From contig NZ_BJNZ01000030.1 in assembly GCF_006539945.1 (NCBI RefSeq), forward strand, positions 1-58,454: 58,454 bases of DNA, given 5' to 3'. Both the position numbers and the translations under genes were made by a program. The notes under the pieces were generated by a model, which was given only the letters and a program-made list of their open reading frames with translations, ran no database searches and was not told the origin of the DNA. Source of the DNA: Cellulosimicrobium cellulans (GTDB taxonomy: Bacteria > Actinomycetota > Actinomycetes > Actinomycetales > Cellulomonadaceae). Positions 6,860-29,520 of this stretch are shown piece by piece (position 1 is the first letter of the stretch; every line of letters starts with the position of its first letter).

Positions 6860-9481
6860 ATGGAAACGAAGTTCACCACGATGTCGCAGCAGGCGATCGG
6901 CGAGGCGATCCAGACCGCGTCGGCCGCCGGCAACCCCCAGCTCGAGCCCACCCACCTCCTCGCGGCGCTGCTCACGCAGGAGGGCGGGGTCGCCGTCGGG
7001 CTGCTCGACGCCGTCGGCGCGGACAAGCAGGCCGTCGGTCAGAAGGTCCGCGCCGCGCTCGTCGCACTGCCCACCGCGAGCGGCTCCGCCGTCGCGCAGC
7101 CGACGCCGTCGCGCGCCACGTCCACGGCGCTCGACAACGCCGCGAAGGAGGCGCAGGCCCTCGGTGACGAGTACGTCTCCACCGAGCACCTGCTGCTCGG
7201 CATCGCCGCGGGATCGTCGCAGGCCGCGACGATCCTCCAGCAGGCCGGCGCGACCGCCGACGCGCTGCGCTCGGCGCTGCCCGCCGTGCGCGGGAGCGCC
7301 CGCGTCACGAGCCCCAACCCCGAGGGCACGTACAAGGCGCTCGAGCAGTACGGCACCGATCTCACGGCCGCGGCCGCCGAGGGCAAGCTCGACCCCGTGA
7401 TCGGTCGCGACTCCGAGATCCGGCGCGTCGTGCAGGTGCTGAGCCGCCGTACCAAGAACAACCCCGTCCTCATCGGCGAGCCCGGCGTCGGCAAGACGGC
7501 CGTCGTCGAGGGCCTCGCCCAGCGCATCGTCGCGGGCGACGTCCCGACGTCGCTCCAGGGCAAGCGCCTCGTGTCTCTCGACCTCGCGAGCATGGTCGCG
7601 GGCGCGAAGTACCGCGGCGAGTTCGAGGAGCGCCTCAAGGCCGTCCTGGAGGAGATCCGGTCCTCCGACGGCGAGGTCGTCACGTTCATCGACGAGCTGC
7701 ACACCGTCGTCGGGGCGGGCGCGGGCGGCGAGGGCGCCATGGACGCCGGGAACATGCTCAAGCCCATGCTCGCGCGCGGCGAGCTGCGCCTCGTCGGGGC
7801 GACCACGCTCGACGAGTACCGCGAGTACATCGAGAAGGACCCGGCCCTGGAGCGCCGCTTCCAGCAGGTCTTCGTCGGCGAGCCCTCCGTCGAGGACACG
7901 GTCGCGATCCTGCGCGGGCTCAAGGAGCGGTACGAGGCGCACCACAAGGTGACGATCGCCGACTCGGCCCTCGTCGCCGCGGCGTCGCTCTCCGACCGGT
8001 ACATCACCGGTCGCCAGCTCCCGGACAAGGCGATCGACCTCGTCGACGAGGCGGCGTCGCGCCTGCGCATGGAGCTCGACTCGTCGCCGATCGAGATCGA
8101 CGAGCTCCAGCGCGCGGTCACGCGCCTCGAGATGGAGGAGGTCGTGCTGTCCGAGTCGACCGACCCCGCGTCGCTCGAGCGGCTCGAGAAGCTGCGCGCC
8201 GACCTCGCGGACCGTCGTGAGGAGCTCGCCGCGCTCACCGCGCGCTGGGAGGCCGAGAAGGCGGGCCACAACCGCGTCGGGGACCTGCGCGCGAAGCTCG
8301 ACGAGCTCCGCGTCCAGGTCGAGCGCGCGATCCGCGAGGGCGACCTCGAGACCGCGGGCCGCCTCCAGTACGGCGAGATCCCGCAGCTCCAGCGTGAGCT
8401 CGACGCGGCCGAGGCCGAGGAGCAGGCCGACGACGCGTTCGCCGCGTCCGGTCCCGAGGCCGCGCCGATGATCGCCGACAAGGTCGGTGCGGACGAGATC
8501 GCGGAGGTCGTGTCCGCGTGGACGGGCATCCCCGCGGGCCGCATGCTCCAGGGCGAGAGCGAGAAGCTCCTGCACATGGAGGACGTCATCGGGGAGCGCC
8601 TCATCGGCCAGCAGGCGGCCGTCCGCTCGGTCTCCGACGCCGTCCGTCGCTCGCGCGCGGGCGTCGCCGACCCGGACCGTCCCACGGGCTCGTTCCTGTT
8701 CCTCGGCCCCACGGGGGTCGGCAAGACGGAGCTCGCGAAGTCGCTCGCGGACTTCCTCTTCGACGACGAGCGCGCCATGGTGCGCATCGACATGTCGGAG
8801 TACTCCGAGAAGCACTCGGTGGCCCGCCTCGTCGGCGCGCCCCCGGGGTACGTCGGCTACGAGGAGGGCGGTCAGCTCACCGAGGCGGTGCGGCGCCGTC
8901 CGTACTCGGTCGTGCTGCTCGACGAGGTCGAGAAGGCGCACCCGGAGGTCTTCGACATCCTCCTGCAGGTGCTCGACGACGGCCGCCTCACCGACGGCCA
9001 GGGCCGCACGGTCGACTTCCGCAACGTCATCCTCGTGCTCACGTCGAACCTCGGGTCGCAGTTCCTCGTCGACCCGATGCTCGACGACGCGGCGAAGCGC
9101 GAGGCCGTGATGAGCACGGTGCGGTCGAGCTTCAAGCCGGAGTTCCTCAACCGCCTCGACGACGTCATCGTGTTCGAGCCGCTGACGATCGAGGAGCTGG
9201 GCCGGATCGTCGACATCCAGGTCGCCGCGCTCGGTCGGCGCCTCGCGGACCGGCGGATCACGCTCGACGTCACGACGGCCGCTCGCGAGTGGCTCGCGCT
9301 CGAGGGCTTCGACCCCGCGTACGGGGCGCGTCCGCTGCGCCGCCTCGTGCAGCGCGAGATCGGCGACCGCCTCGCGCGGATGCTGCTCTCGGGCGACGTC
9401 GCCGACGGCGACGTGGTGCGCGTCGACCGCGACCCCGAGGCCGAGGGGCTGACCCTCGGGACCGAGATCCTCACGGCCTGA
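6860..9481 (+). CDS. clpB: ATP-dependent disaggregase ClpB
   Basis: An 873-residue Hsp100 chaperone that extracts polypeptides from aggregates together with DnaK. The order is the repeated Clp N-domain (residues 1-145), first AAA+ module with Walker [11 protein letters not shown], the coiled-coil middle domain (about 405-530, rich in [10 protein letters not shown]-type heptads), and second AAA+ module with [10 protein letters not shown] and the arginine-rich [10 protein letters not shown] end. Length matches ClpB and the M-domain distinguishes it from ClpA/ClpC. The ATG at 6860 follows GGAG at a good distance. No dnaK operon is adjacent in the window, so clpB stands alone under its own heat-shock promoter. 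A strong hairpin follows the stop. Confidence 0.97.
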
Positions 9482-19007: not shown

Positions 19008-19046
19008 TTGTAAGCGATCGCAAAAGTTGCTACATCTTGCAGCAAC
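19008..19046 (+). promoter_or_regulatory. Amylase promoter with LacI-type operator candidate
   Basis: TTGTAA (19008-19013) and TACATC (19031-19036) lie 17 bases apart as a possible -35/-10 pair. Overlapping the -10 is a 21-base palindrome, 19026-19046, with outer arms GTTGCT / AGCAAC matching at 8 of 10 positions per half. Its placement suits repression of the amylase gene by a MalR/LacI-type sugar regulator. Confidence 0.55.
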
Positions 19047-19140
19047 GGTACAGCCAGGGTGCGTCCTCCACGACGGCGGCACGCGGACCGGCGGCCGACG
19101 TCCCGGCACCGACGCCGGGACACGACACGGAGGATCACCG

Positions 19141-22100
19141 ATGCGAACAACGAGGCTCGCAAGGTCGCGAGCACGCCTGGCGGGGGCCCTGGTCCTCGCC
19201 GTCGCACTGCCGGGGGCGGCCGGCCTGAGCGCCGTCGCGGCGCCGAGCGCGACGACCACGACGACGACCGCGACGGCCATGACGACCGTCTACTACCCCG
19301 AGCGCCCGGGCTGGACGGTGACCAACGTCCACTACGGCGTCGACGGCGCCGCCTGGACGGCGGTCCCGGGCGTCCCGATGGCGGACGCGTGCCCGGGCTG
19401 GCTGACGGCCGAGATCGACCTCGGCGCGGCGTCGGGGGTGCAGCTCACCTTCAACGACGGTGCCGGGACCTGGGACAACAACCGCGGCGCCAACTACCGG
19501 GCGGGCGCGGGGACCGTCGTCGTGCAGGACAGCGTGCTCACCGCGGGGGCGTCGCCGTGCGGCACCGACCCCACCGACCCGACAGACCCGACGGACCCTG
19601 CGGACACGACCGCGACGATCTACTACGCGACGTCGTGGGCCGCGCCGAAGATCCACTACCAGGTGGGCTCGGGCGCGTGGACCAGCGTCCCGGGCACGGC
19701 GATGACCGCGGCGTGCCCGGGCTGGTTCACGTACACCATCGACCTGGGCACCGCGAGCGGCGGCCAGGTCGTCTTCAACGACGGCGCCGGGCGGTGGGAC
19801 AACAACGGCGGAGGCAACTACCGCTACACCGCGGGAGCGCAGACCGCCTCGGGCGGCGTCGTCGCGCCCGTCGCGCAGAGCCCGTGCGGCCCCGACGTCC
19901 CCGAGGAGCCGGACACGCAGGCGCCCAGCGTCCCGTCCGGGCTCGTCGCGACGGCCGACGGCGTGCGCGTGACGGTCACGTGGGACGCCGCGACGGACGA
20001 CACGGCCGTCACCGGCTACACCCTCACCCGCACCGGAGGAGCGGGCCCGGTGACGCGGGACGTCACGACCCCGTCTGCGACGGACGTGGGACTGCTCGAG
20101 CGGACCGCGTACACGTACTCCGTGACGGCCATCGACGCCGCGGGGAACCGCTCGGCGGCGAGCGCGCCCGTCACCGTCACGACGGGGACGAAGCCCGTCG
20201 TCGACCCGGGCACGACGGGCGAGCCGCTCGGCGGGGACCCGCGCGAGGACTCGATCTACTTCGTCATGACCGCGCGCTTCAACGACGGCGTGAGCGAGAA
20301 CAACCGTGGCGGGTCCCAGCACGTGAAGTCGGGCAACGCGGCGAACGACGACCCCATGTTCCGCGGCGACTTCCAGGGGCTGATCGACAAGCTGGACTAC
20401 GTCAAGGGCCTCGGCTTCTCGGCGATCTGGATCACGCCCGTCGTGCTCAACCGGTCCGACTACGACTTCCACGGCTACCACGGCTGGGACTTCTTCCGCG
20501 TGGACCCGCGCCTCGAGACGTCGGGCGCCTCCTACCAGGACCTCATCGACGCCGCGCACGCGAAGGGCATCAAGATCTACCAGGACGTCGTGTACAACCA
20601 CTCGTCGCGCTGGGGCGCCAAGGGCCTGTTCGTGCCGACCGTGTGGGGCGCGCGCGACGGCCAGTGGGACTGGATGTACTCGGCCAAGGAGGAGGGCCGC
20701 GAGTACGACCCGATGGAGGAGAACGACGGGAACGACCCCACCCTCACCGCCGCGCAGAACGCGCTCGCGAAGGGCCGCACGTACAACGGCGACCTGTGGT
20801 CGACGACGGCCCCGGCGGGGAGCACGTGCTCCGGGTTCGGCACGCCCACGCAGTACCAGAGCCCGGAGGGGTTTCAGATCTACAGCTGCCAGTGGCCCTC
20901 GCCCACGTCGGGCATGTTCCCGAAGAGCACGTACCACCAGTGCTGGATCGGCAACTGGGAGGGCAAGGACGCGCAGGACTGCTGGCTGCACGACGACCTG
21001 GCCGACTTCAACACCGAGAACGCCGAGGTGCAGCAGTACCTGATCGACGCCTACAACCGGTACATCGACATGGGCGTCGACGGCTTCCGCGTCGACACCG
21101 CCGTGCACGTCCCGCGCGTCATGTGGAACAGGCACTTCCTGCCCGCGATCCAGGAGCACGCCGTGGCGACGCACGGCGAGAAGGGCAAGGACTTCTACGT
21201 CTTCGGCGAGGTCGCGGCGTTCGTCAACGACAAGTGGAACCGTGGCTCCGTGAACCACTCCGCGCAGTTCTACACGTGGAAGGAGCGCAAGGAGTACTCG
21301 CTGGACGACGTCGTGGCGGCCGCCGAGCAGTTCCAGTACGAGAACCTCCTGGGCACGGGCGACCAGCCGACGTCGGCCAACGCGTTCCTCGGCGGCGCCG
21401 ACGGGAACACGTACCACGCGCCCGACCACTCGAGGTTCTCGGGCATGAACGTCATCGACATGCGCATGCACATGAACTTCGGGGACGCGGGCAACGCGTA
21501 CCACAACGGCAAGGACTCGGACGACTCGTACAACGACGCGACGTACAACGTCGTGTACGTCGACTCGCACGACTACGGGCCCAACAAGTCGACCGTGCGC
21601 TACACCGGCGGCACCGACGCGTGGGCGGAGAACATGAGCCTCATGTGGACCTTCCGGGGCATCCCGACGCTCTACTACGGCTCGGAGATCGAGTTCCAGG
21701 CGGGCAAGCCGATCGACTGCGGTCCGACGTGCCCGCTCGCGACCACCGGGCGCGCGTACTACGGCGACCACCTCGCAGGCGACGTCGTCGCGAGCGACTT
21801 CGGCGTCGTGGAGTCCGCGTCGGGCGCGGTCGCGCAGACGCTCCGGAAGCCGCTCGTCCAGCACGTGCAGCGGCTCAACCAGATCCGTCGCGCCGTGCCG
21901 GCGCTGCAGAAGGGGCAGTACTCGACGGTCGGCGTGCAGGGGAACATGGCCTACAAGCGCCGGTTCACCGAGGGCGCCGTGGACAGCTTCGTGCTCGTCA
22001 CGGTGACCGACGCCGCGACCTTCTCCCGCGTCCCGAACGGCACCTACGTGGACGCCGTGACGGGTGACCGGAAGGTCGTGACGACCGGGACCCTGACGGT

Positions 22101-22200
22101 CCCGGCTCCGGGCAAGGGCAACCTGCGCGCGTACGTCCTCGACCTCCCGGGCAACCCTGCGCCGGGCACGGTCGGGCAGGCGGGGCCCTACCTCAAGTAG
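19141..22200 (+). CDS. Secreted alpha-amylase family GH13 with two CBM25-type starch-binding modules
   Basis: A 1019-residue exoenzyme. A signal peptide (basic start, LAGALVLAVALPG core, end near AVAAPSA at 33-36) is followed by two CBM25-like modules (about 48-140 and 159-247; both contain FNDGAG and WDNN), a fibronectin type III domain (261-352) and a GH13 barrel. The catalytic residues are visible: Asp652 in GFRVDTAVH, Glu690 in FGEV and Asp811 in DSHDYG. It should cleave alpha-1,4 bonds of starch or glycogen outside the cell; the exact product pattern is unclear because the barrel has long insertions. GGAGG precedes the ATG at 19141. A LacI-type operator lies upstream and a bidirectional terminator follows. 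Confidence 0.93.
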   Translation: MRTTRLARSRARLAGALVLAVALPGAAGLSAVAAPSATTTTTTATAMTTVYYPERPGWTVTNVHYGVDGAAWTAVPGVPMADACPGWLTAEIDLGAASGVQLTFNDGAGTWDNNRGANYRAGAGTVVVQDSVLTAGASPCGTDPTDPTDPTDPADTTATIYYATSWAAPKIHYQVGSGAWTSVPGTAMTAACPGWFTYTIDLGTASGGQVVFNDGAGRWDNNGGGNYRYTAGAQTASGGVVAPVAQSPCGPDVPEEPDTQAPSVPSGLVATADGVRVTVTWDAATDDTAVTGYTLTRTGGAGPVTRDVTTPSATDVGLLERTAYTYSVTAIDAAGNRSAASAPVTVTTGTKPVVDPGTTGEPLGGDPREDSIYFVMTARFNDGVSENNRGGSQHVKSGNAANDDPMFRGDFQGLIDKLDYVKGLGFSAIWITPVVLNRSDYDFHGYHGWDFFRVDPRLETSGASYQDLIDAAHAKGIKIYQDVVYNHSSRWGAKGLFVPTVWGARDGQWDWMYSAKEEGREYDPMEENDGNDPTLTAAQNALAKGRTYNGDLWSTTAPAGSTCSGFGTPTQYQSPEGFQIYSCQWPSPTSGMFPKSTYHQCWIGNWEGKDAQDCWLHDDLADFNTENAEVQQYLIDAYNRYIDMGVDGFRVDTAVHVPRVMWNRHFLPAIQEHAVATHGEKGKDFYVFGEVAAFVNDKWNRGSVNHSAQFYTWKERKEYSLDDVVAAAEQFQYENLLGTGDQPTSANAFLGGADGNTYHAPDHSRFSGMNVIDMRMHMNFGDAGNAYHNGKDSDDSYNDATYNVVYVDSHDYGPNKSTVRYTGGTDAWAENMSLMWTFRGIPTLYYGSEIEFQAGKPIDCGPTCPLATTGRAYYGDHLAGDVVASDFGVVESASGAVAQTLRKPLVQHVQRLNQIRRAVPALQKGQYSTVGVQGNMAYKRRFTEGAVDSFVLVTVTDAATFSRVPNGTYVDAVTGDRKVVTTGTLTVPAPGKGNLRAYVLDLPGNPAPGTVGQAGPYLK

Positions 22201-23909: not shown

Positions 23910-24497
23910 GTGACTAGTGATCTGGGCTCGACGCTCGCCGACACGCCCCGCGAGCAGCTGCTCGCCCTCATCCGTGAGCTCGCCGTCGTGCACGGCCGGG
24001 TGACGCTCTCCTCCGGCAAAGAGGCGGACTACTACGTCGACCTGCGGCGCGTGACGCTGCACCACCGCGCGGCGCCGCTCATCGGGCACCAGCTCCTCGA
24101 CCTCCTCGAGGAGCGCGGGCTCGGGACGGCGGAGGTCGACGCCGTCGGCGGGCTGACCCTGGGGGCGGACCCCATCGCGACCGCGCTCCTGCACGCCGCG
24201 GCCTCGCGCGGGCAGGACCTCGACGCGTTCGTCGTGCGCAAGGCGGCCAAGGCGCACGGCATGCAGCGGCAGATCGAGGGTCCGGACGTCGCCGGCCGCA
24301 AGGTCGTCGTCGTCGAGGACACCACCACGACGGGCGGGTCGCCGATCACGGCGATCGAGGCCGTGCGCGCGGCCGGTGGCGAGGTCGTCGGGGTGGCGAC
24401 CATCGTCGACCGCGCGACGGGCGCGGGCGAGAAGATCGAGGCGCTCGGCGTGCCGTACCACTTCCTCTTCAGCCTGGAGGACCTCGGCCTCGCCTGA
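23910..24497 (+). CDS. pyrE: Orotate phosphoribosyltransferase
   Basis: A 195-residue enzyme that joins orotate to PRPP to give orotidine 5'-phosphate in pyrimidine synthesis. The PRPP loop is VVVVEDTTTTGGS, with the substrate segment TLSSGKEADYYVDLR and the basic loop VRKAAKAHG. The GTG start has no SD and follows TACCCT (23897-23902) by seven bases, the leaderless pattern. It is separate from other pyrimidine genes here, and a hairpin follows the stop. Confidence 0.96.
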   Translation: MTSDLGSTLADTPREQLLALIRELAVVHGRVTLSSGKEADYYVDLRRVTLHHRAAPLIGHQLLDLLEERGLGTAEVDAVGGLTLGADPIATALLHAAASRGQDLDAFVVRKAAKAHGMQRQIEGPDVAGRKVVVVEDTTTTGGSPITAIEAVRAAGGEVVGVATIVDRATGAGEKIEALGVPYHFLFSLEDLGLA

Positions 24498-24521
24498 ACC
24501 GACGTCCCGTCGCTGCCTTCC

Positions 24522-24560
24522 CGACGACGCCCCGTGGCCCCGTGCCGCGGGGCGTCGTCG
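24522..24560 (+). terminator. Hairpin after pyrE
   Basis: Thirteen-base perfect arms (24522-24534 and 24548-24560) which can extend inward with a G-T pair; 24 bases after the pyrE stop and just ahead of the iron boxes. Likely pyrE terminator. Confidence 0.65.
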
Positions 24561-24587
24561 TGCTGACGAGGCGCGCGTCACACCAGG

Positions 24588-24630
24588 ATAGGTCAGGCTT
24601 ACCTTGCTTTGGTGAGGCGTGCCTTATATG
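24588..24630 (+). promoter_or_regulatory. Two DtxR/IdeR iron boxes over the htaA-type gene promoter
   Basis: Positions 24588-24606 match the 19-base DtxR/IdeR consensus at 14 positions (core AGGTCAGGCTTACCT). A second site at 24608-24626 matches 13 positions (TTTGGTGAGGCGTGCCTTA). Their centres are 20 bases apart, two helical turns. TATATG at 24625-24630 is the likely -10, with CTTGCT 16 bases upstream, so both boxes cover the promoter and should repress it when iron is sufficient. Confidence 0.8.
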
Positions 24631-24717
24631 GTCCACCACGACGGAGCGTCTGAGCGTCCGTCCGACCCCCGCCGTCCCGCCTCACCGGGACACGCCCGGA
24701 CCAGCACGGGAGACCTT

Positions 24718-27700
24718 GTGCGCACTTCACCGTCGAGACGCGTCCGCCGCGGCCTCGCCTCCTTCCTCGCCGCGGCCCTCGCCGCCGGCCTGACCGTCGC
24801 GGGCGCCGGCGCTCCCGCGCAGGCGGCCCCGACCGAGGTGACGGGCGGCTCGGCCACCTGGAACTTCGTCGACTCCTGGACGTCGTACGTCACCGGCCCG
24901 ATCGCGCAGGGCACGGTCACGCCGGCCCTCCAGGGCGGGCAGTCCTCCTACGGTCCCGCGTCGGGCACGTACGACGACGCGTCCGGCGCCGGCTCGGTGC
25001 GGTTCGGCGGCTCGACCCGCTACCAGGGGCACCACGGCGCGCTCGACGTGACGCTCTCCGACCTGCGCCTCGACCTCACCGGCCCCACGACCGGCGTCCT
25101 CCACGCCGACTTCGCGGGCACGGTGAACGCCGGGGCGGGCGACGACGCCAAGGTCGCGGACGTCGCCGTGTCGGCGACGCGCGACGGCGACCAGGTGACG
25201 TTCGTGGTGGACGGGACCGTCGCGGCGTCGCTCGGCGACGTCTCCTCCTACTTCTCGTCGTACGCGGGCAAGCCGATCGCGACGCTGACCGCGCGCGTCG
25301 TGTCCCCGGAGCCGGCCGCGCCGGCCGAGGCGACCACGACGACGCTCGCCGTGACGCCCGCGACCACGTCGGTCGCGGGCACGACCGTGACGCTCGCCGC
25401 GACCGTCGCGCCCGCCGCAGCGGGCACGGTCGCGTTCCGTGACGGCAGCGCCGTGCTGGGCACCGCGCCGGTGGCCGACGGCGTCGCGCGCCTGGAGACG
25501 GCGAGCCTCGCCGCCGGTGCGCACGAGCTGAGCGCGACCTTCGACCCGGCCGACCCGGCGGCCTTCGTCGCCTCGACGTCGGCCGGTGTCGTGCACTCCG
25601 TGACCGCCGCCGAGCCCGAGCCCGAGCCGGAGCCCGAGCCCGCGGTGGAGCCGAAGGTCACCGTCTCGCCGTCCGCCCCGGTGGACCCGGCGGTGGAGAA
25701 CACGTTCACGATCTCCGGCACCGGCTTCGTCGGCGCGGGCGCGGCGAACGGTGCGTACGTGCTCCTCGGAGGCGCCTCGATCTGGGACGGCAGCGGCCCG
25801 CTCGTCGCGAGCGGCTGGCTCGCCCAGGGCTGGGTGATGCCGCAGCAGGTGCGCTCCGGTGCATTCACCACGACCCTCACCGTCCCGGCGGGGAAGCTCG
25901 ACCCGGCCAAGGAGTACGTCGTCGCGACATCGGCGGCGCACGGCCTCTCGGCGACCGACCGCAGCCTCGACACGTTCACGCCCGTCGCGGTGCAGGGCGC
26001 CACGACCCCGGAGCCCGGCTGGGAGCCGTCGATCGAGCTGTTCGCCGCCGACGGCACCACCCCGCTCGGCGACGCCCCGGTGCGCCCGGACGACACGGTC
26101 GTCGTCAAGGGCTCGGGCTTCGACCCGGAGGGGAACGTCGCGCCTGCCGGGAACCGTCCGCCGATCTCCGAGGGCGTCCCCGCCGGTACCTACGTGGTGT
26201 TCGGCAAGTTCGCGCCGGAGTGGCGGCCGTCGCAGGGCGTCGCGTCGTCGGCGCGCAAGGCAGGGTCGCAGCAGTGGGCGCTCGCGTCCGCGGCGCTCGA
26301 CCAGGTCGACCCGCGCTACCAGAGCGCGATCCGCGGCCAGTGGGCCGAGCTGTCCGAGGACGGCACGTTCACGGCCGAGCTCGTCGCGACCGAGCTCGAG
26401 CTCGAGGGCGGCCGCTACGGCGTGTACACCTACGCCGCGGGGGGGACGGTCAACGCAGCACAGGAGCTCTACGCGCCCGTCGCGTTCACGACCGAGCCCG
26501 CCGCCCCCGTCTGGGAGCCGGAGATCATGGTCTTCGCCGAGGACGGCGTGACGCCGCTCGGCGACGCCGAGGTCTCGGTGGGCGACACGATCGTCGTGAA
26601 GGGATCCGGCTTCGACCCCACGGCGAACGTCGGTGGCCGCGGCGTCCCGATCCCGGCGACGCTGCCGCAGGGCACGTACGTCGTGTTCGGGAGCTTCGCC
26701 GAGCAGTGGCGCCCGTCCGAGGGCGCCGCGTCGTCGACGCGCAAGGTCGGGTCCCAGGCGTGGGCCCTCGCCGAGCCGGTGCTCGACCAGGTCCCCGCCC
26801 AGTATCAGTCCGTGATCCGTGCGCAGTGGACGGACATCGCCGAGGACGGCACGTTCGAGGCACGGCTCGTGGTGAAGAGCCCGGGCCTTCTCGACGGCGG
26901 ACGGTACGGCGTCTACACGTACGGCGCCGGCGGCGTGACCAACGCGGACCAGGAGCTCTTCGCTCCCGTCACGTTCGACGCCCCCGTGTCGCTCACGGTG
27001 ACGCCCGCCGCCACGACGGTCGAGGCCGGGAGCACCGTGCGGTTCACCGTGGACGGCCTCGTCGAGGGCGACGCCGTCAAGGGCGTGACGTTCGGCGGAA
27101 AGGCTGCGACCTACTCGCGTGACGGTGCCACGATCCTGCTCACGGTCCCGGCCGACGCCGCCGTGGGTCCCGTCCCCGTCGTCGTGACGTCCGAGCTCGG
27201 CGTGACCGGCAGCACGACGCTCACCGTCTCGGCTCCGGCTCCGGAGCCCACGCCGACGGTGACGGTGTCGCCGTCCGCTCCCGTGGACCCGGCGGTGGAG
27301 AACACGTTCACGGTCTCGGGTACCGGGTTCGTCGGCGACGGCGCGCGGTTCGGCGCGTACGTGGTGGTCGGCGAGAAGTCGATCTGGGACGGCTCGGGCC
27401 CGCTCGTCGCGACGGGGTGGCTCCAGCTCGGCTGGGTCATGCCGCAGCAGGTGGTCGACGGCGCGTTCACGACGACGCTGACCGTCCCCGCGGGCTCGTT
27501 CGACCCGTCGAAGGAGTACGTGGTCGCGACGTCGGCGGCGCACGGCCTCTCGGCGACCGACCGCAGCCTCGACACGTTCACCCCGGTCGCGGTGCGCCAG
27601 CCCGCGCCGGAGGCCCGGCCGACCACGACGGCCCTCGCCTCGTCGGCGGCCTCGGTCGTCGAGGGGACGGCCGTGACGTTCACGGCGACGGTCACCCCGA

Positions 27701-29460
27701 AGGCGGCCGGCACGGTCCGCCTCACCGCCGGGGACACGACGCTCGGCACGGCGACGGTCGTGGACGGCGTCGCGTCGTACCGGGCGACCGGTCTCGCGGC
27801 CGGGTCGCACGCCGTGTCGGCGACGTTCGTGCCGGCGGACAGCACCGCGTTCGTCGGTTCGACCTCGTCGCCGGTCACGGTCACGGTGACGGCGAAGCCT
27901 TCGGTCCCGACGACGGCAGGCTCCCTGACGTGGGGCGTCAAGGAGTCGTTCCGCAGCTACATCGTCGGCCCGGTCGCGGCCGGCGGGGCGTCGGCGTCGT
28001 CCGGCGCGGCCGTGGTCGACGGCCTCTTCCGGTTCGGCCAGGCCGACGGTGGCACGTGGACCGCGGCGAGCGGGCGGGGCAGCGTGAAGTACTCCGGCAC
28101 GGTCCGCTTCACGGGCCACTCGGGCGCGCTGGACCTCGCGCTGACCAACCCGGTCGTCGACGTCACCGGGCCCGGTGCGGGGCGCCTGCTCGTGGACGCA
28201 CGCTCGACGGGGCTCGACGGCTCGACGTTCGACCGCCAGGGCGTCGTCTTCGCGACGCTCGCGCTCGGAGCGCCGACGACGGGTGCGGACGGGGCCGTGA
28301 CCTACCCGAAGGCCGCGGCGACGCTCACGGCCGACGGCTCGCTCGCGTTCTCCGGCTTCTACCCGGCCGGCACCGCGCTCGACCCGGTGACCTTCACCGT
28401 CGGCGCGACGTCGACGGTCCCCGGTGACGGTGGCACCATCGGCACCCCGGGCACCGGGACGCCGGGGACGCCGACGGACCCGGCGAAGGCGACGCTCTCG
28501 GTGTCGCAGGCCCGTCCGGGTGACGAGGTCACGATCAGCGGCGTCGGGTTCGGCGCCCACGAGTCGGGCCTCCGCACCGAGATCCGCTCGACGCCGCGCA
28601 CGCTCGCGACGGGTGTCACCGCGAACGCCGGCGGCGCCGCGAGCTCGACGGTGACGATCCCGAAGGACGTCACCCCGGGTGAGCACACGCTGCTGCTGAT
28701 CGGTGCGGACCACACGGCGTCCGCGCCCCTCACGATCGTCGGCGCCGGCACGACCGGCACGGGCACGGGGTCGGGCAGCGGGGCGGAGCAGTGCTTCGCC
28801 CAGGGCGTCCACGGCGCGACCCTCTCGTGGGGCGTGAGCGACCGGTTCCGCGCGTACGTCACCGGCCCGATCGCGAAGGGCTCGGTCTCGACGAGCGGCG
28901 TGCAGGACTCCGGTTCGGCGTTCGCGTGGAGCGGCGGCAAGGGCTCGTTCAACACGGACCTCGGCAAGGGCCGCGCCAGCCTCGGCGGCTCGGTGTCGTT
29001 CTCCGGCCACGAGGGCATCCTCGACCTGCGGATCAGCAACCCTCGCGTCGTCGTGGACGGGTCGTCGGGCACGCTCGTGGTCGACGTCCAGAGCAGCGAC
29101 ATGGAGGGCAACAAGTCCTCGTCGAGCGGCGTCGCGTTCGCGAGCCTGGACCTGTCGGGCAAGAAGTCGACGTCGGGTTCCACGATCACGTGGAACGGCG
29201 CTCCCGCGACCCTCACGGCCGCCGGGGCGAAGGCGTTCGCCGGGTTCTACGAGGCCGGCACCGCGCTCGCGCCGGTGACGTTCGCCTTCCCGGTCGGCGG
29301 CGACGTCGAGTGCGACGCGTACTCGGGCGCCCTCGCGTCCACGGGGTCCGACAGCGGGAACCTCGCGCTCCTCGCGGGCGTCCTGCTCGCCACCGGTGCG
29401 GCCCTCCTGGGCGTGCAGCGGCGTCGGGCCCGGACGGTCGGGGCGGTCGGGACCGCCTGA
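24718..29460 (+). CDS. Cell-wall-anchored protein with three HtaA heme-binding domains
   Basis: A 1580-residue surface protein. A signal peptide (RRVRR, then a hydrophobic core to about AQAAP) is followed by HtaA domain 1 (~43-196), an Ig-like Big_3_5 domain, an acidic EP-repeat linker, module A (~315-427), two copies of module B (~431-591, 595-751), an Ig-like domain, module A again (~842-960), a second Big_3_5, HtaA 2 (~1065-1235), an IPT-like domain and HtaA 3 (~1358-1531). Each HtaA keeps the tyrosine (SYVTGPIA, SYIVGPVA, AYVTGPIA) and histidine (GHHGALD, GHSGALD, GHEGILD) important for heme binding in corynebacteria. LASTG (1539-1543), a membrane helix and RRRAR form a class E-like sortase signal. 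GTG at 24718 follows GGGAGA; upstream ATGs fall inside the promoter. Predicted heme capture under iron starvation. Confidence 0.9.
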   Translation: MRTSPSRRVRRGLASFLAAALAAGLTVAGAGAPAQAAPTEVTGGSATWNFVDSWTSYVTGPIAQGTVTPALQGGQSSYGPASGTYDDASGAGSVRFGGSTRYQGHHGALDVTLSDLRLDLTGPTTGVLHADFAGTVNAGAGDDAKVADVAVSATRDGDQVTFVVDGTVAASLGDVSSYFSSYAGKPIATLTARVVSPEPAAPAEATTTTLAVTPATTSVAGTTVTLAATVAPAAAGTVAFRDGSAVLGTAPVADGVARLETASLAAGAHELSATFDPADPAAFVASTSAGVVHSVTAAEPEPEPEPEPAVEPKVTVSPSAPVDPAVENTFTISGTGFVGAGAANGAYVLLGGASIWDGSGPLVASGWLAQGWVMPQQVRSGAFTTTLTVPAGKLDPAKEYVVATSAAHGLSATDRSLDTFTPVAVQGATTPEPGWEPSIELFAADGTTPLGDAPVRPDDTVVVKGSGFDPEGNVAPAGNRPPISEGVPAGTYVVFGKFAPEWRPSQGVASSARKAGSQQWALASAALDQVDPRYQSAIRGQWAELSEDGTFTAELVATELELEGGRYGVYTYAAGGTVNAAQELYAPVAFTTEPAAPVWEPEIMVFAEDGVTPLGDAEVSVGDTIVVKGSGFDPTANVGGRGVPIPATLPQGTYVVFGSFAEQWRPSEGAASSTRKVGSQAWALAEPVLDQVPAQYQSVIRAQWTDIAEDGTFEARLVVKSPGLLDGGRYGVYTYGAGGVTNADQELFAPVTFDAPVSLTVTPAATTVEAGSTVRFTVDGLVEGDAVKGVTFGGKAATYSRDGATILLTVPADAAVGPVPVVVTSELGVTGSTTLTVSAPAPEPTPTVTVSPSAPVDPAVENTFTVSGTGFVGDGARFGAYVVVGEKSIWDGSGPLVATGWLQLGWVMPQQVVDGAFTTTLTVPAGSFDPSKEYVVATSAAHGLSATDRSLDTFTPVAVRQPAPEARPTTTALASSAASVVEGTAVTFTATVTPKAAGTVRLTAGDTTLGTATVVDGVASYRATGLAAGSHAVSATFVPADSTAFVGSTSSPVTVTVTAKPSVPTTAGSLTWGVKESFRSYIVGPVAAGGASASSGAAVVDGLFRFGQADGGTWTAASGRGSVKYSGTVRFTGHSGALDLALTNPVVDVTGPGAGRLLVDARSTGLDGSTFDRQGVVFATLALGAPTTGADGAVTYPKAAATLTADGSLAFSGFYPAGTALDPVTFTVGATSTVPGDGGTIGTPGTGTPGTPTDPAKATLSVSQARPGDEVTISGVGFGAHESGLRTEIRSTPRTLATGVTANAGGAASSTVTIPKDVTPGEHTLLLIGADHTASAPLTIVGAGTTGTGTGSGSGAEQCFAQGVHGATLSWGVSDRFRAYVTGPIAKGSVSTSGVQDSGSAFAWSGGKGSFNTDLGKGRASLGGSVSFSGHEGILDLRISNPRVVVDGSSGTLVVDVQSSDMEGNKSSSSGVAFASLDLSGKKSTSGSTITWNGAPATLTAAGAKAFAGFYEAGTALAPVTFAFPVGGDVECDAYSGALASTGSDSGNLALLAGVLLATGAALLGVQRRRARTVGAVGTA

Positions 29461-29476
29461 GCCACCGGCACCACGC

Positions 29477-29520
29477 ACGACGGCGCCCGGTCACCTCGCG
29501 AGGTGACCGGGCGCCGTCGT
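29477..29520. terminator. Perfect palindrome after the HtaA protein gene
   Basis: Twenty-two-base perfect arms (29477-29498, 29499-29520), 17 bases after the stop; folding leaves a small loop at the centre. Likely terminator without T-run. The remaining 110 bases to the next stop hold only short CCCCGGG-containing direct repeats. Confidence 0.75.

What the first reader, a model, noticed from the sequence alone, without database searches (positions are those of the whole stretch)
24588..29460. Iron-box-controlled, sortase-anchored protein with three HtaA domains and duplicated unknown modules
Two DtxR/IdeR-like boxes, 20 bases apart, cover the promoter of a 1580-residue wall protein that has three HtaA domains with conserved Tyr and His, an LASTG sortase signal, and no hmuTUV heme transporter next to it. 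Between the HtaA domains lie two copies of a ~155-residue module (WEPSIELFA... to YAPVAF) and two of a ~115-residue module (VTVSPSAPVDPAVENTF...) that I cannot assign. It may be a long-reach heme collector that hands over to an unlinked importer.
Basis: partly seen in the sequence, partly recalled or inferred. Interest (0 to 1): 0.75.

Follow-up and report, generated by a model that had tools for sequence, protein, structure and literature searches.

The report
Iron-regulated wall-anchored multi-domain heme collector
A soil actinobacterium encodes a long cell-wall protein with three heme-binding-type domains, a likely iron switch and a heme importer placed elsewhere in its genome, and the unexplained modules inside it belong to a domain family, apparently without a name, that recurs beside bacterial heme importers.

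Summary
Confirmed. The window lies in a Cellulosimicrobium-type genome. The gene (24718-29460, 1580 aa) encodes a protein with a sortase signal and three HtaA (CR) domains that keep the axial Tyr, helper His and a terminal Tyr of heme-bound CR domains. Two DtxR/IdeR-like boxes (24588, 24608) are the two best plus-strand matches in 58 kb; their 20-bp pairing is kept in 15 of 15 genus members compared. The predicted unlinked importer exists: hmuO and hmuTUV lie on another contig with boxes before hmuO and hmuT, 106-125 kb from the HtaA gene in seven sister genomes. HmuT aligns with Corynebacterium glutamicum HmuT at its heme-site His, Tyr and Arg. A class E sortase is present. In other genera such proteins are often encoded near hmuTUV. 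The unknown modules A (~115 aa) and B (~160 aa) are homologous Ig-like beta-sandwiches with weak neocarzinostatin similarity. A third homologue, C, is encoded close behind hmuT (in the loci read, right after hmuV) in 22 of 99 relatives, including all six with HmuT but no detected HtaA. So A/B/C look like a heme-uptake-associated family, not only spacers. Unlinked HtaA genes are known in Corynebacterium. Heme binding, handover and iron induction are inferred, not shown.

The parts
24588..24606 (+). DtxR/IdeR-like box 1
   Evidence: 5 of 19 mismatches to the recalled consensus, best plus-strand site of the window; kept in the genus
24608..24626 (+). DtxR/IdeR-like box 2
   Evidence: 6 of 19 mismatches, second best site; 20-bp spacing in 15 of 15 genus members compared
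24718..29460 (+). gene of the 1580-residue wall protein (GTG start chosen, not proven)
24718..24828 (+). likely signal peptide, ending ...APAQAA (read by eye)
   Evidence: translation; no signal-peptide predictor run
24838..25305 (+). HtaA1 (divergent C-terminal third)
   Evidence: PF04213 24847-25206, 76.5 bits; residues; PDB relatives
25315..25608 (+). Big_3_5 Ig-like domain 1 (limits set by me)
   Evidence: PF16640, two stretches in the protein
25648..25998 (+). module A1
   Evidence: AlphaFold2 mean pLDDT 97.0
26017..26499 (+). module B1
   Evidence: AlphaFold2 mean pLDDT 94.0
26509..26985 (+). module B2
26983..27225 (+). TIG-like Ig domain
   Evidence: PF01833 E 0.019, 15.4 bits, below the cut-off of 20.9
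27250..27600 (+). module A2
27637..27891 (+). Big_3_5 Ig-like domain 2
   Evidence: PF16640, residues 974-1058
27919..28398 (+). HtaA2
   Evidence: PF04213 146.8 bits; residues
28816..29283 (+). HtaA3, nearest the wall anchor
   Evidence: PF04213 169.6 bits; PDB relatives 8smu and 6jsa; residues
29332..29427 (+). LASTG sorting signal with hydrophobic stretch
   Evidence: TIGR01167 20.1 bits, cut-off 15.9

Best explanation
It is an iron-repressed, sortase-anchored heme collector of the HtaA/CR kind. When iron is short, an IdeR/DtxR-type repressor leaves the double box (inferred from the motif). The protein is exported and the class E sortase joins it to the wall at LASTG (inferred). HtaA1, at the free end, takes up heme; HtaA2 and HtaA3 pass it inward, and HtaA3, nearest the wall and best conserved, gives it to the HmuT lipoprotein of the unlinked HmuTUV importer; HmuO, behind its own box, opens the heme ring (all inferred from families and residues). 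No second HtaA gene was found in this genome, so one protein would do the work that HtaA and HtaB share in Corynebacterium. Modules A and B space the outer HtaA from the two inner ones; because their relative C is encoded behind the importer genes elsewhere, they probably also have a specific part in the pathway, such as docking or ligand handling.
For: Three HtaA domains with the Tyr and His of solved CR domains (ligands from passages of PMC12494546). No other PF04213 match in the genome. HmuO is PF01126, 204.2 bits against 23, and HmuT is PF01497, 133 against 27.5. HmuV passes NF010068 'heme ABC transporter ATP-binding protein', 311 against 261. HmuT's best PDB match is 5az3, E 7.7e-56, with GH and Y-x-R in register, the axial His141, Tyr240 and helping Arg242 of CgHmuT (passages of PMC4926363). 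Boxes before the collector, hmuO and hmuT; double box kept in the genus. Class E sortase 230.9 against 160. HtaA and HmuT co-occur, Fisher p 5e-15 over 99 relatives, 2e-10 outside the genus. Complete hmuTUV within the fetched flank in 47 of 77 named loci. Median identity rises toward the wall: H1 0.70, H2 0.84, H3 0.92 in 10 proteins of the genus.
Against: No expression, binding or transfer data. 6 of 49 HtaA-positive relatives have no HmuT match at E 1e-30. HtaA3 has Arg where the C. diphtheriae CR domains keep a Ser on a propionate. In five Oerskovia proteins the gradient is not monotonic: 0.55, 0.51, 0.84. The 10 proteins were picked by module B. A gradient could also come from faster change of exposed parts. 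The box consensus was recalled, and 5 to 7 of 19 positions differ. Related genomes can hold a second heme locus, so partners may vary.
Confidence: 0.78

Rival explanations
1. The modules A and B are only stalk: repeated Ig-like domains that lift HtaA1 off the wall, with no ligand of their own.
For: Ig-like folds. Copy number varies freely in related proteins: one to four B, none to four A. Of 19 proteins in HtaA-picked loci, 9 gave no module A or B match to the window's segments (L066-L070, L073, L077, L078 without either, L072 with A only).
Against: Module C, a homologue, is encoded 1.9-2.3 kb from hmuT in 22 of 22 relatives that have it strongly, which a pure stalk does not explain. In HtaA-picked loci A and B, where present, are about as conserved as HtaA, while Big_3_5 domains are found in 2 of 19.
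Confidence: 0.4
2. The protein is mainly a receptor for a hemoprotein or another surface, with heme binding secondary; A and B bind the protein partner.
For: Long multi-Ig wall protein. Passages of PMC12494546 say that C. diphtheriae uses a separate hemoglobin receptor, HbpA, so a receptor function is needed somewhere.
Against: Three HtaA domains keep heme-site residues. The passage of PMC12494546 on hemin capture says that ChtA and HtaA CR domains take hemin passively (section title). No partner is known for this soil-type genus.
Confidence: 0.15
3. The protein is a heme buffer or store at the wall and does not feed HmuTUV.
For: Importer unlinked; 6 of 49 HtaA-positive relatives lack a HmuT match.
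Against: Shared boxes with hmuO and hmuT, co-occurrence with HmuT and frequent linkage in other genera.
Confidence: 0.08

Closest known systems
HtaA/HtaB/Cht + HmuTUV heme uptake of Corynebacterium (passages of PMC12494546, PMC4926363 and PMC6701010)
   Same: CR (HtaA) domains with axial Tyr and helper residue, DtxR-type control, HmuTUV and HmuO; several HtaA-type genes already lie outside the hmu locus there
   Different: those proteins have one or two CR domains and a membrane helix; here three CR domains, a LASTG sorting signal, four extra A/B modules, a single HtaA gene in the genome and none at the hmu locus
DtHtaA/DtHtaB of Dietzia (passages of PMC8027190)
   Same: HtaA-domain proteins raised under iron limitation, genes near a heme ABC transporter
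   Different: DtHtaA has one HtaA domain and is found in mycomembrane and vesicles
NEAT-domain wall proteins (Isd type; PMC7815599, listing only)
   Same: wall-displayed multi-domain heme relay by layout
   Different: no NEAT domain found here; HtaA domains instead
Neocarzinostatin family PF00960, for modules A, B and C
   Same: weak Pfam similarity and an Ig-like beta-sandwich
   Different: best E 2.1e-4 to 0.012; no neocarzinostatin among the 50 Foldseek rows shown for A or for B; found at heme loci

Membership tests
HtaA/CR-domain heme-uptake surface proteins | HtaA (CR) domain | tested here: met
   PF04213 353.5 bits against 24, three stretches
HtaA/CR-domain heme-uptake surface proteins | axial Tyr and helper His | tested here: met
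   54 of 54 and 54 of 54 rows with a residue there. Rows came from matches at E 1e-12 or better; three weaker HtaA-like stretches (L042, L046, L053) were dropped and by eye lack the GH motif
HtaA/CR-domain heme-uptake surface proteins | Ser and Tyr at a heme propionate | tested here: inconclusive
   Ser in domains 1 and 2; Arg in domain 3 of 16 genus rows, Lys and Thr in two Oerskovia rows. Terminal Tyr in domains 2 and 3; in domain 1 a Tyr lies two columns off across a gap
HtaA/CR-domain heme-uptake surface proteins | iron control through DtxR/IdeR-type boxes | tested here: inconclusive
   motif met; expression and repressor binding not testable
HtaA/CR-domain heme-uptake surface proteins | hmuTUV in the same locus | tested here: not met
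   none in the window. Not a strict criterion: unlinked HtaA-type genes exist in Corynebacterium
HtaA/CR-domain heme-uptake surface proteins | binds heme | not testable with these tools
   needs protein
Sortase-anchored wall proteins | C-terminal sorting signal | tested here: met
   TIGR01167 20.1 bits against 15.9
Sortase-anchored wall proteins | a sortase that fits | tested here: met
   class E sortase NF033747 230.9 against 160; a second, class F-like one is below its cut-off, 115.7 against 166. That class E takes LAXTG is recalled
NEAT/Isd heme relay | NEAT domain | tested here: not met
   Pfam at E up to 1 lists HtaA, Big_3_5 and TIG only
Neocarzinostatin family (modules A, B, C) | Pfam PF00960 match | tested here: inconclusive
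   at E up to 1: 10 of 28 B rows (best 4.8e-4), 2 of 27 A rows (best 0.012), 4 of 9 C rows (best 2.1e-4); the window's own A1 and B1 rows not among the tables' neocarzinostatin hits
Neocarzinostatin family (modules A, B, C) | neocarzinostatin as near structural relative | tested here: not met
   not among the 50 Foldseek rows shown for A or for B, mainly antibody domains; matches beyond rank 50 were not shown

The most novel reading that the evidence does not exclude
Modules A, B and C form one undescribed domain family that takes a direct part in actinobacterial heme import, as a second heme-, hemoprotein- or HmuT-binding module beside HtaA. C, encoded behind the importer genes, can stand in for HtaA, and the AHG histidine shared by A and C may touch the ligand.
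Probability: 0.3. Interest if true: 0.75.

Novelty: new variant of a known kind. Interest (0 to 1): 0.5.

Why it matters
The printed work on HtaA-type heme uptake that I saw concerns Corynebacterium and Dietzia, where short membrane-bound proteins share the task. Here one wall-anchored protein appears to cover the whole way to an importer encoded elsewhere, which gives a simple system for asking how CR domains pass heme along, a question that a passage of PMC12494546 leaves for future studies. If modules A/B/C handle heme or dock to HmuT, a domain family found strongly (module B, E below 1e-10) in 57 of 396 sampled genomes of the order gains a function.

Tried and rejected
Considered and dropped. 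(1) 'Module B is better conserved than HtaA': one search shows it outside the genus, but those loci were picked by module B; in HtaA-picked loci the two are about equal or B is lower, so I do not claim it. (2) Other FecCD sets as heme importer: C20 has an F420-0-type binding protein (TIGR03868, above cut-off), C2 a FhuD-like one, C13 a Fe-siderophore-type permease just below its cut-off; two further weak FecCD matches (C1, C28) were not read. (3) Module C in this genome: no match at E 1e-5. (4) Sigma-70-type promoter or T-run terminator in 24400-24760: none. (5) PDB relatives of A, B or C by sequence: none convincing. (6) 'B without HtaA': 18 of 74 genomes, but 7 of these 18 have only weak B matches that may be module C, and of the four B proteins of this group that I scanned with my HtaA profile, L114 and L116 gave E 6.9e-7, L121 0.0018 and L118 0.43 (database of 8 proteins), so part of them carry a divergent HtaA; B standing alone is not shown. 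(7) Unlinked HtaA genes as a novelty: passages of PMC12494546 and PMC6701010 describe them in Corynebacterium. (8) Print: the listings show no title or abstract start that describes these modules or a sortase-anchored HtaA protein of this kind; I saw listings and passages only, and most subscription papers are not held. PHROGs and PADLOC were not searched.

Limits: gene calls in fetched loci come from a script of mine. The hmu matches are BLAST matches to this genome's hmu proteins with thresholds that I set. The 20 loci were chosen by me from the 74 genomes.
Full report
What is there. The window is contig C30 of a 4.6 Mb genome. The gene runs from GTG 24718 to 29460 (1580 aa). Order: signal peptide (by eye), HtaA1, Big_3_5, A1, B1, B2, a TIG-like part below cut-off, A2, Big_3_5, HtaA2, a linker that looks Ig-like to me, HtaA3, LASTG signal. 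Upstream on the same strand lies an ORF that I read as pyrE from its translation (not searched), downstream on the other strand a HAD-IIA hydrolase.

Control. The boxes at 24588 and 24608 are the two best plus-strand matches to the recalled consensus in 58 kb, with 5 and 6 mismatches of 19. 60 simulated windows had on average 0.17 such sites and none had a close pair. Genome-wide, a degenerate pattern with up to 3 mismatches gave 12 places against 2 for the reversed control. They include the two boxes here, one before hmuO, one before hmuT, one before a Fe-siderophore-type permease (C13), one at a Peripla_BP_2 protein (C6) and boxes before two siderophore-interacting proteins (C7:66308, C22 with two overlapping hits). 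Three places (C1, C3, C7:99293) I did not place. The pair with 20-bp spacing, at 5 to 7 mismatches each, is in 15 of 15 genus members compared (14 relatives and the window; L055 and G007 were not compared). In two Oerskovia-type loci box 2 is kept but the next best site is not at that spacing.

Importer. Of eight FecCD matches in the genome one, on C14, stands in an hmuT-hmuU-hmuV set that follows hmuO. HmuO is PF01126 and HmuT PF01497; HmuV passes a curated heme ATPase model. HmuT aligns with C. glutamicum HmuT at GH and Y-x-R, the ligand His, Tyr and helping Arg in passages of PMC4926363. In seven sister genomes with both genes on one contig the starts listed for an HtaA match and for hmuT lie 106,088 to 124,777 bp apart. 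In 99 relatives: HtaA and HmuT 43, HtaA only 6, HmuT only 6, neither 44 (p 5e-15); outside the genus 26, 6, 6, 44 (p 2e-10). Fisher tests ignore relatedness of the genomes.

Heme site. Passages of PMC12494546 name an axial Tyr, a helper His (Tyr in ChtA), and a Ser and a Tyr at a propionate. In 55 HtaA rows of 17 relatives and the window the axial Tyr and the helper His are present in each row with a residue there (54 and 54). HtaA3 has Arg for Ser in 16 genus rows, Lys or Thr in two Oerskovia-type rows. HtaA1's last Tyr is offset by a gap. L042, L046 and L053 carry a further weak HtaA-like stretch where B1 sits here (E 4e-4, 1e-2, 2e-4).

Modules. A and B are homologous by profile comparison (96% probability, E 1.3e-9). 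AlphaFold2 gives confident beta-sandwiches (mean pLDDT 97.0 for A, 94.0 for B). Foldseek's 50 rows shown are mainly antibody domains at low TM-score (rank 1: TMq 0.49 for A, 0.30 for B). Pfam sees weak neocarzinostatin similarity in 10 of 28 B rows, 2 of 27 A rows and 4 of 9 C rows. No Pfam or NCBIfam family covers them in this protein.

Where the modules occur. 77 of 77 named loci picked by module B have HtaA in the same ORF; complete hmuTUV lies in the fetched stretch in 47, part of the set in 5, none in 25. Of these 25, 15 are Cellulosimicrobium-type or Oerskovia loci (one of them recorded as Sphaerisporangium); some of the others end at a contig edge. Of 20 more loci, chosen by me from the order search before hmu genes were looked for, 19 hold hmuT, hmuU and hmuV matches and one, on a short contig, part of hmuV; L123 and L124 had no module-B match at my local threshold. 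In 396 genomes of the order B is found in 74, HtaA in 96, A in 30. B with HtaA 56, B only 18, HtaA only 40 (p 2e-26); A with HtaA 28, A only 2 (p 6e-17). 17 of the 74 B genomes have only matches weaker than 1e-10, which may be module C; without them B with HtaA 46, B only 11, HtaA only 50, neither 289 (p 5e-23). Of the 18 'B only' genomes I read six loci, and all six have hmuTUV (L113, L114, L116, L118, L121, L123). Part of them may hide a divergent HtaA. In 396 genomes of the phylum B is found in 9, the window's included.

Module C. In many loci a gene close behind hmuV encodes a protein with a B-like domain; the four that I read in full begin with a signal-like stretch and have a hydrophobic stretch later on. 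Nine align with invariant residues through D-C, C-G, G-A-H, N-A, N-E-T-F and P. C is homologous to B (98%, E 3e-14) and more weakly to A (72%, E 3.5e-5), with the AHG histidine of A and C in register; B has Gly there. In 99 relatives 23 have a match at 1e-5: 22 strong (E 4.6e-66 or better) and one weak (G009, 5.2e-6), which lies in its HtaA gene. The 22 strong ones lie 1,948 to 2,293 bp from hmuT; 22 of 22 genomes have HmuT; the six HmuT-positive genomes without a detected HtaA all have C; the 27 HmuT-positive genomes without strong C all have HtaA. The window's genome has none at 1e-5. This is why I think A/B/C are more than spacers, though spacing is surely part of it.

Mechanism. Shown here: gene, domains, heme-site residues, boxes, sortase gene, unlinked importer genes, co-occurrence. 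Inferred: iron repression, wall anchoring, heme uptake by HtaA1, inward passage, transfer from HtaA3 to HmuT. Median identity to the window's domains is H1 0.70, H2 0.84, H3 0.92 in ten genus proteins and 0.55, 0.51, 0.84 in five Oerskovia proteins; this fits a constrained inner domain but does not prove it.

Comparison with print. In Corynebacterium, CR proteins with one or two CR domains and a membrane helix feed HmuTUV, and several lie outside the hmu locus (passages of PMC12494546, PMC4926363 and PMC6701010). PMC6701010 passages also report HtaA-domain genes induced by iron limitation in C. pseudotuberculosis. So the principle is known; three CR domains, the sorting signal, the single HtaA gene and the A/B modules are what differ.

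Verdict. This is a new variant of HtaA-type heme uptake; the more novel part is the A/B/C domain family.

Noticed in passing
L112:7086-7982, L113:3660-5078, L116:8096-9451, L120:6716-7642, L121:3454-4875: Module-C genes close behind hmuV; a homologous domain with an invariant GAH motif and no Pfam family above cut-off.
   Followed up: partly
L042, L046, L053 (between A1 and B): A weak HtaA-like stretch, by eye without the GH helper motif, stands where module B1 sits in the window.
   Followed up: partly
L126:5850-11369: Four module-B copies with the same score in one protein, which suggests recent duplication or gene conversion.
   Followed up: no
window 29482-29515: 34-bp perfect palindrome 21 bp after the stop codon, without a T run.
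   Followed up: no
L144 (QAPD01000083.1): Record named Sphaerisporangium cinnabarinum, but its contig has the length (23,913) of a contig of G010, a genome placed in the window's genus; the name looks wrong.
   Followed up: no
L215-L218: Short proteins (362-368 aa) with one B and one HtaA domain, three of the four records named Gordonia, without hmu matches in the fetched flank.
   Followed up: no
G007, G008, G011, G016 (window's genus): A second hmuT (46-50% identity) with module C about 2 kb away and a weak or single HtaA match nearby; G007 has only this type.
   Followed up: partly
L061 about 8150-8260: Short imperfect repeats (CTACCTCGGC..CCAGGGCT) between hmuO and hmuT.
   Followed up: no
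window 19027-22200: Alpha-amylase with CBM25 and CBM26 starch-binding modules upstream.
   Followed up: no
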